Below, piece by piece: positions 11,106 to 55,305 of a stretch of DNA of 64,000 bases. Below the pieces are notes generated by a model. The model was not told where the DNA came from and did no database searches. It saw nothing but the letters and a program-made list of their open reading frames with translations. The DNA comes from Sciurus carolinensis. Lineage: Eukaryota > Chordata > Mammalia > Rodentia > Sciuridae. Every line of letters starts with the position of its first letter. The first letter of the stretch is position 1. The DNA is taken from positions 31,516,954 to 31,580,953 of the forward strand of contig NC_062232.1 of NCBI RefSeq assembly GCF_902686445.1. The letters are read 5' to 3'. The position numbers and the translations under genes are program-made.

Positions 11106-11316
11106 AAAGGAGAAAGAGTGCAGTAGATACAGTTAAAGCAGTGTTCAGAGGAACATTTATAGCATTGGAGGCATATATTAGAAAAGAGAAGTGACCTCAC
11201 AACAATATCAACTATCACAACTTAGATAAAATGGACCAATTTCTCAAAAATCACAAGGTATCAAAAACTCATCCAAGATGAGACAGATAGTCTTTCCAAG
11301 AAGAAATTTCCATGTA

Positions 11317-41698: not shown

Positions 41699-41704
41699 AA
41701 AGAT
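41699..41704 (+). repeat. Provirus target duplication, left copy
   Basis: AAAGAT directly before the 5' LTR. The same six bases follow the 3' LTR at 45070-45075. Six bases is the betaretrovirus/IAP size. The pair shows that both LTRs belong to one integration event and the outer ends are not rearranged. Confidence 0.85.
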
Positions 41705-42062
41705 TGTCGGGGTTTCGGCCGGACCCCTGGCCCTAGGTGTGGCAAGGCTAAGATGGCGCCTGGCAGTGAGCCAGAGCAGCTAACTTTTACATAAACAACT
41801 GACATCGTATTGAGGAAGTTCGAGGGATTGGCTGAGCTCCCTGATGGACAGTGCAGGTCCATGTATGCCTGCCTTTGCTGCCTATATCTGTGCATGCTCT
41901 CCCCTCGTGCTCAAAGGCTGATTGGTTACAAGTACTGTATATATTGGAGTGTAAGTTCCTCAAAGAGGAGAACAAAGAAAGAACGATGAGGAAGTAGACG
42001 CGCGCAATAAAGAGCTGAAAAGAACCAGGTGTCGTGTCTCTCTGCGGGCAGGGAGTGCGATA
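41705..42062 (+). repeat. Provirus 5' LTR (358 bp)
   Basis: Starts TGTCGGGG. An inverted CCAAT motif (ATTGG) is at 41921-41925, a TATATAT box at 41938-41944 and the AATAAA signal at 42006-42011, so U3, R and U5 can be ordered. A three-codon upstream frame (ATGAGGAAGTAG) starts at 41986, inside the likely transcript leader. The right end is placed at GCGATA. Shifting one base would make a 7-bp target duplication instead. Confidence 0.92.
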
Positions 42063-42064
42063 GG

Positions 42065-42082
42065 TGGCGCCGAAACCCGGGA
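42065..42082 (+). other. Primer-binding site, tRNA-Phe-like
   Basis: TGGCGCCGAAACCCGGGA, two bases after the LTR. It fits the 3' end of tRNA-Phe at 17 of 18 positions (fourth base C instead of T), the primer known for IAP-type elements. Confidence 0.85.
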
Positions 42083-42094
42083 ATCTACAGATAA

Positions 42095-42096
42095 AG
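42095..42096 (+). promoter_or_regulatory. Candidate major splice donor
   Basis: AAA|GTAAGAG just after the primer site matches a 5' splice-site consensus. Joined to the acceptor at 42958, it would give a short leader and place the ATG at 42988 first after the LTR upstream frame. Confidence 0.5.
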
Positions 42097-42114
42097 TAAG
42101 AGGTAATTATTTAT

Positions 42115-42274
42115 TTTCATTTATGACCTTGAGTCCGTCATTGGTATTTCATTTATGACCTTGAGTCCGTCATTGGTATTTCATTTATGACCTTGAGTCC
42201 GTCATTGGTATTTCATTTATGACCTTGAGTCCGTCATTGGTAGTTCATTTATGACCTTGAGTCCGTCATTGGTA
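42115..42274 (+). repeat. Five tandem 32-bp repeats in the leader
   Basis: The unit contains GACCTTGAGTCCGTCATTGG. The TTATGACC landmark recurs at 42121, 42153, 42185, 42217 and 42249, exactly 32 bases apart. The first three full unit junctions read GGTATTTC; the last junction reads GGTAGTTC. The repeats lie where retroviral packaging and dimer signals usually sit, which is suggestive only. Confidence 0.95.
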
Positions 42275-42499
42275 GCCGGCAGTGAAGGGTAAAGAACCCA
42301 GAAAAAAATTAAAACTTCATAGATAGATGCAGTGGTACCAGATTGTTTGTGTGGTGTGTGTTATTTTTGTGTTTGTTGTGTGGCTTGTTTGTGTGCTTGG
42401 AGCTCTTAGTGCTGTAAGATTTAATCATAGGAACAGAACTGTCTAAGACTGGAATGCAGCAGCCTAACAGCTTGAGCATTCCTTGATACCATAAAAAAG

Positions 42500-42893
42500 G
42501 TCTCTCCGTGGTTTTTAGATAAGGGTTGTTAAATATATTCCTCAGTGGAAGCACCTGGGAGAGGATCTACACTTAACAAAAAAACAAAAGCTGTTACCTG
42601 TTGGAACTTTAGCCATTTGGTCCCTGATTAAATCTTGCTTACAACATAAAGATAAACAAAATCTAAAGGGACCCCTGGAAGAGGGAAGTCAGGTTTTAGA
42701 AGAGATTAAAGAGAAACGGTTCTGTTCTCAGAACTCAGAAAGAAATAATAACTCAGAAGGGGAAGATTCAAAAGAGGAATTTTCAGGGGGGGAGCTAGAA
42801 AGGACATTTGGGAAGCTAACAATGCAGTCTAAGCGCCCTATTAATGATGACATTGACACCGGTGAAGACTCGAGACCTGTGGGCAATAGTTAA
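42500..42893 (+). pseudogene. gag matrix remnant, frame-disrupted
   Basis: Two open pieces in different frames look like the start of a betaretroviral Gag matrix domain. The first, at 42500-42532, contains SPWFLDKGC and ends at a stop. The second, open from 42519 to a stop at 42893, contains LPVGTLAIWSLI and then an acidic serine-rich stretch. No in-frame gag start, capsid, nucleocapsid, protease or polymerase is present. The tail of the second piece overlaps the beginning of the env open frame. The element cannot make Gag particles. Confidence 0.55.
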
Positions 42894-42911
42894 AGCTTGG
42901 CCATATCCTTT

Positions 42912-42958
42912 ACCGCTAACTAACACCTCCCCTACCCTCCCACCTTTGTTTTCTACAG
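42912..42958 (+). promoter_or_regulatory. Candidate env splice acceptor
   Basis: Branch-point-like GCTAACTAAC at about 42915-42924, then a pyrimidine tract CCCTACCCTCCCACC and TTTGTTTTCTACAG ending at 42958. It lies inside the open frame that begins at 42844, which argues that the first 38 or so codons of that frame are not used in a spliced env message. Confidence 0.7.
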
Positions 42959-42987
42959 GACCTAGGACTGGATTGCCGACTGTCATC

Positions 42988-44520
42988 ATGGATCCCAAGG
43001 AAGAACCTTATAATTTTTCTACCCTTTCTCTGCCAGGTACCCTTTGCTTTGATATCTCTACCAATAACAAATTTGTTAATGACACTTCTCTTAGGCCTTG
43101 CATTCTATTACAGCGTGAAGTGCAAGGGTTATTTTTAAGACAGCCTACTAAAGGGATTGATTTCCAAGAATGTATGACTATCACCCAGGGTAAAGCTACA
43201 GGGACAAGTAAGATTACTATTTCAGGGCGAGTTGTCTTTCTTGAAGGTTTAATCCCAAAGCGACTGGAGCTGCCATCTACTGGATTTCATACACCTCGTG
43301 TTTTCCCTCCTTGTGACCCCAAATTTTCTAGTCCTCCCTTTTGGACAGGTTGTCAACATGCTAAAGGAGCAGCTCCTATTCAACATGGATTTTATTTCAC
43401 CCCAAACTTTACATACCAGCAATCTGTGAACAATTTTATCCAAAACCTCGTCTACCTTGGCTTTTGTCAAGATATAAATCCTTTTGATAATTGGTTCCTA
43501 TTTACCTCCCAAGCAGGATATACTAATCTTCAGCCTTTGTTTGCTCTACAAGGAGGTTCGTTTAAGGCCTGTTATTGGAATCACACTTCAGATCATACTG
43601 GCACGGGCCCTTTCCAGACCAGTGAGATAGCTTGTAACAATACTATAACATTGTATTCCACTCCTGTGTGTGTCTATCCTCCTTTTATGTTCCTATTAAC
43701 TAATGTTTCTAATGGCACGACCCTCAACTGCTCTGGAACTAACTGCTATCTTTCTCAGTGTTGGAACGCAACAAAATATTCCCGAGCCGTCATTATGCGT
43801 ATTCCTACTTTCTTGCCCATACCAGTCTCTGTTACAGATGATGAATTGCCAGTATTGCTTTCCAGAAATAGGAGAGACTTTGGAATCACCGCAGCAGTCA
43901 TTACCGCTATAGTTGCATCAGCGGCAGCTGCCACTGCAGCAGCTGTAGCCTTAACTACATCTGTACAATCTGCAGCCACAATCAATAAGGTGGTTCAACA
44001 GACTGCTACTGCCTTATCTACTCAGCAGACAGTGGATCAACACTTAAAAGCAGGAATTCTTTTAGTAAACCAGCGAGTGGACTTGCTTCAGGAACAAGTG
44101 GACATCTTACAAGAACTGTTAAACGTGGGATGTATTTATCGTCTGACGGGACTGTGCGTTACACCTGTAGCTTACCATAACCTTAGCTATGCAGCAAACT
44201 TGTCTAGAATCTTGTCTGCTCAGCTACAAACAAATTGGTCTTATACATTTGATAATCTTACTGCTATTCTTAGATCTCAAATTGTTAGTCTCAATGCTAC
44301 TAGAGTTAATGTAGCCCCTATGTCCGAAGTGCTAAGTTGGCTATCCTCTTCTTTCAGTTTTGTAAAGCAATGGGCAGGTATGGGAGCCTTTTGTATGTTC
44401 ATGGTTGTTGCTGTTGTCTTCCTCACACGCTTTATCATGCGCATGCGCCGAGATCAAGCTAGAGATCGTATCATCTTCCATCAGGCCATGGCTGCCCTAG
44501 AGGCCGGCAGTTCCCCATAA
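42988..44520 (+). CDS. env: Endogenous retroviral envelope protein, betaretrovirus-like, intact frame
   Basis: The frame is open from 42844 (558 codons). I start at 42988 (510 residues): that ATG has a good context (A at -3, G at +4) and follows the splice acceptor at 42958, whereas the 42844 ATG has a weak context and lies before it. Surface subunit: residues 1-296, about nine N-glycosylation motifs, ending in a furin-type RNRR site. Transmembrane subunit: alanine-rich fusion-peptide-like stretch from 297, heptad region about 325-375, a two-cysteine loop (C382 and C390, no third cysteine), about five N-glycosylation motifs, membrane span about 462-480, tail of 30. No hydrophobic signal peptide is seen from either start, so surface delivery is doubtful unless an unseen upstream exon supplies one. 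Probably a class II env related to IAPE/HML types. Confidence 0.88.
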   Translation: MDPKEEPYNFSTLSLPGTLCFDISTNNKFVNDTSLRPCILLQREVQGLFLRQPTKGIDFQECMTITQGKATGTSKITISGRVVFLEGLIPKRLELPSTGFHTPRVFPPCDPKFSSPPFWTGCQHAKGAAPIQHGFYFTPNFTYQQSVNNFIQNLVYLGFCQDINPFDNWFLFTSQAGYTNLQPLFALQGGSFKACYWNHTSDHTGTGPFQTSEIACNNTITLYSTPVCVYPPFMFLLTNVSNGTTLNCSGTNCYLSQCWNATKYSRAVIMRIPTFLPIPVSVTDDELPVLLSRNRRDFGITAAVITAIVASAAAATAAAVALTTSVQSAATINKVVQQTATALSTQQTVDQHLKAGILLVNQRVDLLQEQVDILQELLNVGCIYRLTGLCVTPVAYHNLSYAANLSRILSAQLQTNWSYTFDNLTAILRSQIVSLNATRVNVAPMSEVLSWLSSSFSFVKQWAGMGAFCMFMVVAVVFLTRFIMRMRRDQARDRIIFHQAMAALEAGSSP

Positions 44521-44534
44521 GTATGGCTCACGAT

Positions 44535-44680
44535 GCTGGATCGCTAGCCAGACGGGTAAGGAAGGAGGTGACCACCGTACCGACCTAAGACAGGAGCTGT
44601 AGCATGCTCTGCAGTTATCCGATGACGGGTAAGGACGGTGGTTGACCACTCCGCCTAAGACAGGCACGGTCCCGAGCTTT
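44535..44680 (+). ncRNA. CTE-like RNA export element
   Basis: Between the env stop and the polypurine tract two motif pairs repeat: GACGGGTAAGG at 44551 and 44624, and CCTAAGACAGG at 44584 and 44654. These are the internal-loop motifs of the constitutive transport element of simian type D retroviruses, which recruits NXF1/TAP to export unspliced RNA. GACCACCGT (44570-44578) can pair with ACGGTGGTT (44635-44643), and CTGTAG with CTGCAG near the apex, giving the long two-loop hairpin expected. Confidence 0.82.
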
Positions 44681-44692
44681 CCTTTTCTTTTT

Positions 44693-44711
44693 AAAAGAGA
44701 AAAGGGGGAAC
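44693..44711 (+). other. Polypurine tract of the provirus
   Basis: AAAAGAGAAAAGGGGGAAC lies directly before the 3' LTR, the usual plus-strand DNA primer position. Confidence 0.9.
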
Positions 44712-45069
44712 TGTCGGGGTTTCGGCCGGACCCCTGGCCCTAGGTGTGGCAAGGCTAAGATGGCGCCTGGCAGTGAGCCAGAGCAGCTAACTTTTACATA
44801 AACAACTGACATCGTATTGAGGAAGTTCGAGGGATTGGCTGAGCTCCCTGATGGACAGTGCAGGTCCATGTATGCCTGCCTTTGCTGCCTATATCTGTGC
44901 ATGCTCTCCCCTCGTGCTCAAAGGCTGATTGGTTACAAGTACTGTATATATTGGAGTGTAAGTTCCTCAAAGAGGAGAACAAAGAAAGAACGATGAGGAA
45001 GTAGACGCGCGCAATAAAGAGCTGAAAAGAACCAGGTGTCGTGTCTCTCTGCGGGCAGGGAGTGCGATA
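44712..45069 (+). repeat. Provirus 3' LTR (358 bp), same as 5' LTR
   Basis: Reading both LTRs side by side I found no difference over all 358 positions. Every landmark is offset by exactly 3,007 (AATAAA at 45013-45018). The 3' end runs into AAAGAT, then host sequence. Confidence 0.92.
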
Positions 45070-45075
45070 AAAGAT

Positions 45076-54245: not shown

Positions 54246-55262
54246 TACTCTTTTTTTTATTTGTTCCTATTAGTTCTACATGACAGTAGAGTGTATTTTG
54301 ACATATTATACATACATGGAGTATAATTCCCCATTTTTGTGGTTGTACAGGATGTAGAATTATACTGGTCGTGTATTCCTATATGAACATTGTAAGGAAC
54401 AAGGCTGCAGCTATTCTCCCCTGATTCTGCCCCCTCCCCACACACCATATTGTAACCTAGACTGTTAACTTTCTTGTCAATCATTGGTCCAATTAGCCCA
54501 CGGGCTTTCACTATTTAGGGGAATTCCCCTGCTATTTGCTCTCTTTTCTCTCTCACTTTCACTCTCACTCTCACATTCTTGCTCTAACTTTCTCTTTCAA
54601 CCTTAAGGCAGACACTTTGTTCATCTGATAATAAAATCTCTTGTGTGAGTTCCCAAGTTCTGAGTGGTTTCTGGGTGCTTTCAAATATAGGAAAATTATG
54701 TCTGATTCATTCTACTGTCTTTCCCATTCCCATCTTCTCTCCCTTCCCTTCATTCCCCTTTGTCTAATCCAATGAACGTCTATTCTCACTCCGCCTTATT
54801 GTGAGTTAGCATTCACGTATCAGAGAGAGCATTCAGCCCTTGTGTTTTTTGGATTGGCTTATTTCACTTAGCATGATAGTCTCCATGTCCATCCTTTTAC
54901 TGGCAAATGCCATAATTTCATTCTTTAAGGTTGAGTAAGATTCCACTGTGTATATATACCACATTTTCTTTATCCATTCATCTGTTGAAGGGCATCTAGG
55001 TTGGTCCCATAGTTTAGCTATTGTGAATTGAGTTGCTGTAAATATTGATGTGGCTGTGTCACTGTAGGATGCTGATTTTAAGTCCTTTGGGTATGTGCCA
55101 AGAAGTGGGATAGCTGGGTCAAATGGTGATTCCATTCCAAGTTTCTGAAGAATCTCCATACTGCTTTCCAGAGTGGTTGCACCAATTTGCAGTCCCACCA
55201 GCAATGTATGAATGAACATTTTCCCCACATCCTTGCCAACATTAATTGTTCTTATATTCTTG
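54246..55262 (-). mobile_element. L1 3' end, antisense, split by a solo LTR
   Basis: The minus-strand frame 54833-55228 contains KKMWYIYTVESYSTLKNEIM and PFDPAIPLLGTYPKD, C-terminal L1 ORF2 wording. The 3'UTR continues to 54246 and is interrupted at 54391-54683. Confidence 0.9.
54391..54683 (+). mobile_element. Solo LTR of 293 bp inside an L1 3'UTR
   Basis: TGTAAGGAAC...GTGCTTTCA. The left flank AACAT and right flank AATAT differ at one base, and removing the insert restores GAACATAGGAAAATT of the L1. AATAAAATC near 54631 is the polyA signal. It contains a CTTTCACTCTCACTCTCAC pyrimidine run. Confidence 0.82.
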
Positions 55263-55305
55263 ATAATTTATACATGCTTTCCTTAGTCTTTATTCTAAGG
55301 TAACA

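What the first reader, a model, noticed from the sequence alone, without database searches (positions are those of the whole stretch)
41705..45069. Env-only provirus with two seemingly identical LTRs: a non-autonomous element that moved recently
Seen: two 358-bp LTRs with no difference by eye, an intact 6-bp duplication, and a body that lacks pro, pol and most of gag. Inference: the deletion pre-dates this copy, so the RNA was packaged and reverse-transcribed by proteins from another element. Unlike most defective trans-mobilised families, the part kept is a full env frame. At usual mammalian neutral rates, no change over two 358-bp LTRs suggests an age of at most a million years or so (assumed rate, not measured). 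It may be polymorphic in the species.
Basis: partly seen in the sequence, partly recalled or inferred. Interest (0 to 1): 0.93.

Follow-up and report, generated by a model that had tools for sequence, protein, structure and literature searches.

The report
Young recombinant of two defective retroviruses
A likely squirrel genome carries one young retroviral insertion that joins the broken front part of a many-copy defective element to the envelope half of a different element, likely made when a borrowed reverse transcriptase switched between two RNAs in one particle; its envelope gene is not complete, so it is probably a passenger rather than a working protein.

Summary
The identical LTRs (358/358) and 6-bp duplication AAAGAT are confirmed. 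The 5' part (41705-42894: LTR, leader, broken gag scrap, last 64 bases of pol) belongs to a family, A, whose stretch 42560-42880 is matched in 40 of 40 scored places, own locus included, at 99-100%. The 3' part (42830-45069) belongs to env-bearing copies, nearest L009: 14 differences in 1882 bases. Only the own locus carries both parts: 1 of 40 scored places. The crossover lies in a 65-base patch, 42830-42894, shared by both. U3 is nearer L009; R-U5 is nearer the closest A copies but divided over all A copies, suggestive of template switching. So the gag-pol loss pre-dates this copy and is shared, but the layout with env looks private. Env is not full: its signal peptide is cut at 42830 and its tail has a private stop. 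A CTE-like RNA follows env. The kind is known (bovine D-type ERVK, ETn, IAP 1-delta-1); this is a new member.

The parts
41699..41704 (.). target-site duplication AAAGAT, left copy
41705..42062 (+). 5' LTR (TG...TA), TATA-like at 41938, AATAAA at 42006
   Evidence: 358/358 identical to the 3' LTR
42065..42082 (+). primer binding site, tRNA-Phe type (sequence match recalled; IAP and IAPE use tRNA-Phe, PMC7472051 passages)
42115..42274 (+). five 32-bp tandem repeats in the leader; number varies 0 to 5 in the 16 loci counted, own included
42421..42656 (+). gag matrix (MA) scrap spread over three frames, with a stop inside
42657..42829 (+). further gag-side sequence up to the deletion junction
42830..42893 (+). 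3' end of pol (integrase C-terminus and its stop)
42830..42894 (.). 65-base patch shared by both parent groups; inferred crossover interval
42844..44517 (+). open env frame of 558 codons from its first ATG; signal peptide truncated; SU and TM present
43864..43875 (+). SU/TM cleavage motif RNRR (furin reading recalled), followed by the fusion-peptide-like stretch
44131..44157 (+). TM cysteine motif CX7C, the beta-retroviral type
   Evidence: motif class from PMC7354474 passages
44518..44520 (+). env stop not seen in the other copies read
44545..44668 (+). CTE-like RNA with two AAGACA half-sites (44587-44592 and 44657-44662)
44693..44709 (+). polypurine tract
44712..45069 (+). 3' LTR
45070..45075 (.). 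target-site duplication AAAGAT, right copy

Best explanation
This is a young provirus made of a family A front (41705 to 42830-42894: LTR, leader, broken gag) and an env-bearing back (42830-42894 to 45069) taken from a relative of locus L009, likely formed when reverse transcriptase supplied in trans switched templates between two co-packaged RNAs inside a 65-base patch that both share. Shown: the two resemblances and the shared patch, identical LTRs, an intact 6-bp duplication, a broken gag, an env without a complete signal peptide, and many other copies of the same broken 5' end. Suggestive only: U3 is nearer L009 while R-U5 is nearer the closest A copies. Inferred: the RNA was exported with help of the CTE-like element after env, packaged by Gag of another element, primed on a tRNA-Phe-type site, and copied and integrated by another element's Pol. 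Synthesis would have started on the A RNA (giving R and U5), jumped to the 3' end of the env-bearing RNA (giving U3, the export element and env), and switched back to the A RNA at 42830-42894. Env is then a passenger rather than the reason for mobility.
For: Identical LTRs and duplication. 42560-42880 matched over its whole length, or all but its last base, in 40 of 40 scored places of 392 candidates, own locus included. A query over the junction is covered in full only by the own locus; the other 39 of 40 start at 42830 (of 683 candidates, of 1123). Family A homology ends at 42894 in 17 of 17 copies; env-type homology starts at 42830 in 8 of 8 reads from 7 loci. SU 99.7% and TM 98.8-99.0% to L009; gag side 97.9-100% to A copies. 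U3 nearer L009 in 15 of the 16 A copies with data, 1 tie; TM nearer L009 in 14 of 14 (13 A copies and L015). R-U5: the nearest A copies (L010, L011, L014, L016) beat L009 by 8-9 sites to 0-3. The gag stop is shared by 17 of 17 other A copies, so gag was dead before this insertion. LTR pairs of nine fetched copies differ at 0 to 4 sites, so the group moved recently. Precedents: passages of PMC10924933, PMC7472051 and PMC6466679.
Against: Over all 16 A copies with data R-U5 is divided: 8 for the A copy, 7 for L009, 1 tie; the leader 42063-42114 is 2 for A, 6 for L009, 6 ties; post-env is 1 for A, 5 for L009, 2 ties. Six of the U3 wins rest on one or two sites. L009 itself carries the A type of LTR, so the real donors may be other copies. 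Only 40 places are scored per search, so a second copy of the mosaic could be missed. No working helper was found, because the gag search did not complete. LTR identity can also come from conversion between LTRs.
Confidence: 0.78

Rival explanations
1. A longer provirus inserted here and lost gag-pol afterwards by a private deletion.
For: Only one scored place has the full layout.
Against: The 42830 gag/pol-end junction is shared by at least 39 other scored places and the gag stop by 17 of 17 A copies, so the loss came first.
Confidence: 0.03
2. The window copy is a relict of the ancestral form from which family A arose, not a recombinant.
For: Family A carries the first 65 bases of the pol-end/env patch, so an ancestor with that junction joined to env likely once existed.
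Against: SU and TM are 98.8-99.7% identical to L009, closer than the TM parts of A copies (63.3-98.3%; TM nearer L009 in 14 of 14 comparisons), and the copy is young.
Confidence: 0.07
3. An A copy and an env-bearing copy recombined as DNA (ectopic exchange or gene conversion) at this site.
For: Both kinds are present in many copies; R-U5 is divided between parents.
Against: Both LTRs are identical and the duplication is intact; reverse transcription yields two identical LTRs at once.
Confidence: 0.07
4. A spliced env mRNA was packaged and reverse-transcribed.
For: Splice-like sites are seen by eye near 42096 and at 42959.
Against: 767 bases of leader and gag side remain up to 42829, the junction cuts the env signal peptide, and family A shares the junction without SU.
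Confidence: 0.02
5. Env is kept because it works for the host or the element (entry, interference or placental fusion).
For: The 558-codon frame is open; syncytin-Mar1 is a squirrel-clade captured env (title seen in the reference list of PMC9367772).
Against: The signal peptide is cut and the tail has a stop not seen in relatives; the copy is too young for openness to mean much.
Confidence: 0.03

Closest known systems
Bovine ERVK[2-1-LTR] D-type elements (PMC10924933, passages read)
   Same: Non-autonomous class II ERV carried by others in trans, young and numerous; keeps LTRs plus parts of gag and env while the centre is replaced; recombines with competent relatives.
   Different: The window copy has SU and TM in an open frame and no foreign centre; no competent partner was identified here.
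IAP 1-delta-1 and ETn/MusD of mouse (PMC6466679, PMC7472051, passages read)
   Same: Deleted elements moved by proteins of relatives; IAP and IAPE share the tRNA-Phe type of primer site.
   Different: IAP 1-delta-1 keeps a gag-pol fusion frame and these groups lost env; the window copy has dead gag and keeps most of env.
IAPE / HERV-K-like betaretroviral Env
   Same: GP41 domain (PF00517), best solved-structure hit HERV-K TM, CX7C motif; named relatives mostly in rodents, also Microcebus and Manis.
   Different: Closest named protein is a Sciurus carolinensis predicted protein at 61%; no family assignment by Gag or Pol was made.
Type D retroviral CTE (SRV-1/MPMV)
   Same: Lies just after env, two AAGACA sites, 14 consecutive bases shared with the SRV-1 half-CTE oligo printed in PMC4330393.
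   Different: The second oligo does not match clearly better than chance; no Rfam model matched at its curated score; here it is coupled to a beta-type Env.

Membership tests
Class II (beta-like) endogenous provirus | paired LTRs, 6-bp duplication, PBS, PPT | tested here: met
Class II (beta-like) endogenous provirus | beta-type Env with CX7C TM | tested here: met
Trans-mobilised non-autonomous ERV family | many copies sharing the same loss of gag-pol function | tested here: met
   40 of 40 scored places; gag stop in 17 of 17 A copies
Trans-mobilised non-autonomous ERV family | recent insertions with own duplications | tested here: met
   nine elements (eight A-like and L009), LTR pairs 0-4 differences; 8 of 9 show matching 6-bp duplications as cut
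Trans-mobilised non-autonomous ERV family | a competent partner supplying Gag-Pol | tested here: inconclusive
   open pol stretches exist in env-bearing copies; gag search unanswered
   1 of 40 scored and, own locus only; 683 and 1123 candidates not all scored
Functional retroviral Env | complete signal peptide | tested here: not met
IAP/IAPE group | tRNA-Phe primer site | tested here: inconclusive
   tRNA match recalled; the window has the same site as 4 of 15 other copies, 9 of 15 have one that differs at one base, 2 differ otherwise
IAP/IAPE group | placement by Gag or Pol phylogeny | not tested
   -
[quoted passage not shown]
   inner half-site is in the minimum-energy fold; both can form together 2.5 kcal/mol above it; AAGACA invariant in 30 of 30 rows
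CTE (NXF1-binding export element) | compensatory base changes | tested here: inconclusive
   none seen; too little variation
CTE (NXF1-binding export element) | export activity | not testable with these tools
   -

The most novel reading that the evidence does not exclude
Family A is a modular parasite of other retroviruses. It keeps a fixed 5' half and two fixed joints, the 65-base pol-end/env patch and the CTE-like RNA, and repeatedly swaps in new envelope halves from co-packaged relatives through these joints; the window copy is a freshly caught product of that exchange, with the donors of its parts still readable.
Probability: 0.3. Interest if true: 0.62.

Novelty: new member of a known kind. 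Interest (0 to 1): 0.42.

Why it matters
It looks like a natural record of one reverse-transcription recombination between two defective groups, with the crossover narrowed to 65 bases. It also adds a likely squirrel example to the small set of ERV systems in which defective elements are numerous and young. If the conserved joints are really recombination cassettes, that would explain how dead elements keep refreshing their 3' halves. As an env story it is less than it looked, since the envelope frame is not complete.

Tried and rejected
Rejected: private deletion after insertion, spliced env RNA, a functional env, and an env-only family (see rivals). Led nowhere: viral-contig scans with the env protein, its alignment and a CTE pattern (no relatives); Rfam (nothing that fits); a fold signal in the leader repeats (four of the five units, z -0.84); a protein-database search for the junction peptide (none of 7 candidates scored); covariation in the CTE-like RNA (none). 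Before the genome search answered I read 42830-42893 as gag and looked for the junction near 42860-42871; searches corrected that. A 44-base loss in gag counted from P0025 is not shared by all A copies, so only the stop is used as the shared lesion. Limit: every genome search scores 40 places only.
Full report
Observation. The two LTRs (41705-42062 and 44712-45069) are identical over 358 bases and the insertion is flanked by AAAGAT on both sides. With zero differences the 95% upper age is 0.9 to 1.9 million years for assumed rates of 4.5e-9 to 2.2e-9 per site per year (rates recalled, not measured). The element sits in a 131.7-Mb contig of a 2.8-Gb, 752-contig assembly, so LTR collapse is unlikely; conversion between LTRs cannot be excluded. 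The window holds SINEs that I recall as squirrel-type, and the closest named Env is from Sciurus carolinensis at 61%, so a squirrel host is likely but not named by any search.

Anatomy. After the 5' LTR come a primer site of tRNA-Phe type (match recalled; IAP and IAPE use tRNA-Phe according to passages of PMC7472051), a leader with five 32-bp repeats, and a gag matrix scrap. Pfam gives a weak Gag_p10 match (E 0.0028, below the curated cut-off). The close relative P0025 aligns in three pieces in three frames with a stop inside. Env follows: GP41 domain, HERV-K TM as best solved-structure hit, CX7C motif and cleavage motif. Then come a CTE-like RNA, a polypurine tract and the 3' LTR.

Where the junction is. 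Env-bearing copies in the same genome align with the window from exactly 42830 onwards (8 of 8 reads from 7 loci; 39 of 39 other scored places). In L003 and L009 the sequence just upstream is pol: L003 has an open stretch with RNase H and integrase domains, and its pol frame ends with the same ten residues and stop as the window frame at 42891-42893. So 42830-42893 is the end of pol, not gag. The env frames of L003 and L009 start upstream of 42830 with a hydrophobic stretch that fits a signal peptide. The window keeps only the end of it: after its first ATG (42844) the best 11-residue hydropathy in the first 25 residues is 0.65, against 0.95 to 3.12 in seven database relatives. The last residues of the tail lie behind a stop that 30 of 30 relative rows (29 loci) do not have. 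Env is therefore not full.

Family A. The stretch 42560-42880 is matched at 99-100% in 40 of 40 scored places (own included) of 392 candidates. Seventeen of the places were read as A copies. All align with the window up to 42894 and then leave it (17 of 17). Twelve come back at 43795 after about 2.2 kb of other sequence, the short copy L010 at 44470, and four (L018, L019, L025, L027) were not fetched far enough to tell. L015 has the same A-like LTR and 3' part but lacks the 42560-42880 stretch and is not counted among the 17. The stop in the gag scrap is present in 17 of 17 A copies besides the window. Nine complete elements (L009-L017) have LTR pairs that differ at 0, 1, 1, 2, 2, 2, 2, 3 and 4 sites, and 8 of 9 show matching 6-bp duplications as cut. 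So A is a large, young group with dead gag; the fetched copies have at most scraps of pol (for L012, the only one whose centre was read), so they were most likely moved by proteins of other elements.

The mosaic. A query across the junction is covered in full only at the window's own locus: 1 of 40 scored (683 candidates) and 1 of 40 (1123 candidates). The other 39 hold only the part from 42830 onwards. The window is 97.9-100% identical to A copies on the gag side and 98.8-99.7% identical to locus L009 over SU and TM, with 14 differences in 1882 bases between 42830 and 44711. Over TM it is nearer L009 than the A-type copy in 14 of 14 comparisons. Both parents share the 65 bases 42830-42894, so the crossover lies there and cannot be placed more finely. 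L009 is a 6.2-kb element with an env frame and pro- and pol-like open stretches interrupted by stops (read by eye, not scanned); no match to the window's gag side was found in it. It is named here only as nearest relative of the env part.

Why reverse transcription. If synthesis began on an A RNA, jumped to the 3' end of an env-bearing RNA and returned to the A RNA in the shared patch (general knowledge of retroviral strand transfer), U3 should resemble the env donor and R-U5 the A donor. U3 is nearer L009 in 15 of 16 A copies with data, with one tie, though six of these rest on one or two sites. R-U5 is divided: 8 for the A copy, 7 for L009, 1 tie; A copies vary much there, and the nearest (L010, L011, L014, L016) beat L009 by 8-9 sites to 0-3. 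The leader next to the PBS (2 for A, 6 for L009, 6 ties) and the post-env stretch (1, 5, 2) do not help. I take this as suggestive, not as proof; the intact duplication and identical LTRs speak for reverse transcription in any case, and the true donors may be copies not read.

The RNA after env. AAGACA occurs twice, inside two copies of CCTAAGACAGG (0.04 expected by chance in the whole window) and after two copies of GACGGGTAAGGA. The stretch 44521-44700 folds better than 198 of 200 shuffles. The inner AAGACA sits in an internal loop of the minimum-energy fold; the outer one there forms a small hairpin instead, but both half-sites can form together at 2.5 kcal/mol above the minimum. PMC4330393 (passages) states that each symmetrical CTE unit has AAGACA in its internal loop and prints SRV-1 half-CTE oligos. 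One shares 14 consecutive bases with the window (0 of 2000 shuffles; 10 is the longest elsewhere in the window), although its ungapped score of 16 of 22 is equalled elsewhere in the window. The other does not beat chance (longest run 10, with 10 and 11 elsewhere in the window; ungapped 65 of 2000 shuffles). AAGACA is invariant in 30 of 30 rows at both sites. The stretch is 94.8-95.8% identical in copies whose TM is only 63-68% alike (L011, L015), 91.1-98.4% in seven copies whose U3 is 77.6-79.7% alike, and 86.9-88.5% in eleven copies whose LTR did not align. No compensatory changes were seen, so the structure rests on motif, position and conservation. A nuclear-export role is likely but untested.

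What is known. Passages of PMC10924933 describe bovine D-type ERVK elements moved in trans that keep flanking gag and env parts and recombine with competent copies, and list ETn/MusD, IAP 1-delta-1 and RecKoRV as parallels; PMC6466679 (passages) says about 1000 mouse IAPs have fully identical LTRs. So the kind is known and identical LTRs alone are common. I found no paper on this family in the listings of searches; the library is partial. [quoted passage not shown]

Verdict. The best reading is a single recent recombinant between a defective family and an env-bearing copy.

Noticed in passing
42115-42274: Five 32-bp tandem repeats in the leader; repeat number varies from 0 to 5 among the 16 loci counted, own included, with no unusual fold.
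   Followed up: partly
L010-L017 (A-like copies): TM parts range from 63% to 98% identity to the window while the CTE-like stretch stays at 94.8-100%, suggesting repeated 3' swaps.
   Followed up: partly
L012:1612-3833: The roughly 2.2 kb that replaces SU in family A includes an integrase-like scrap (read by eye); the rest was not identified.
   Followed up: no
L028-L047: Of 20 env-bearing 3' ends read, 9 have a U3 that is 77.6-90.9% alike to the window's and 11 have an LTR that did not align, so more than one LTR type shares the same env and CTE-like stretch.
   Followed up: partly
P0023, P0024: Cricetulus and Scotinomys predicted proteins join a Gag p24 part to Env, hinting at similar gag-to-env joins in other rodents, or at merged gene models.
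   Followed up: no
54833-55267 (-) and 11126-11239: LINE-1-like coding scraps (identity recalled from the residues).
   Followed up: no
   Followed up: no
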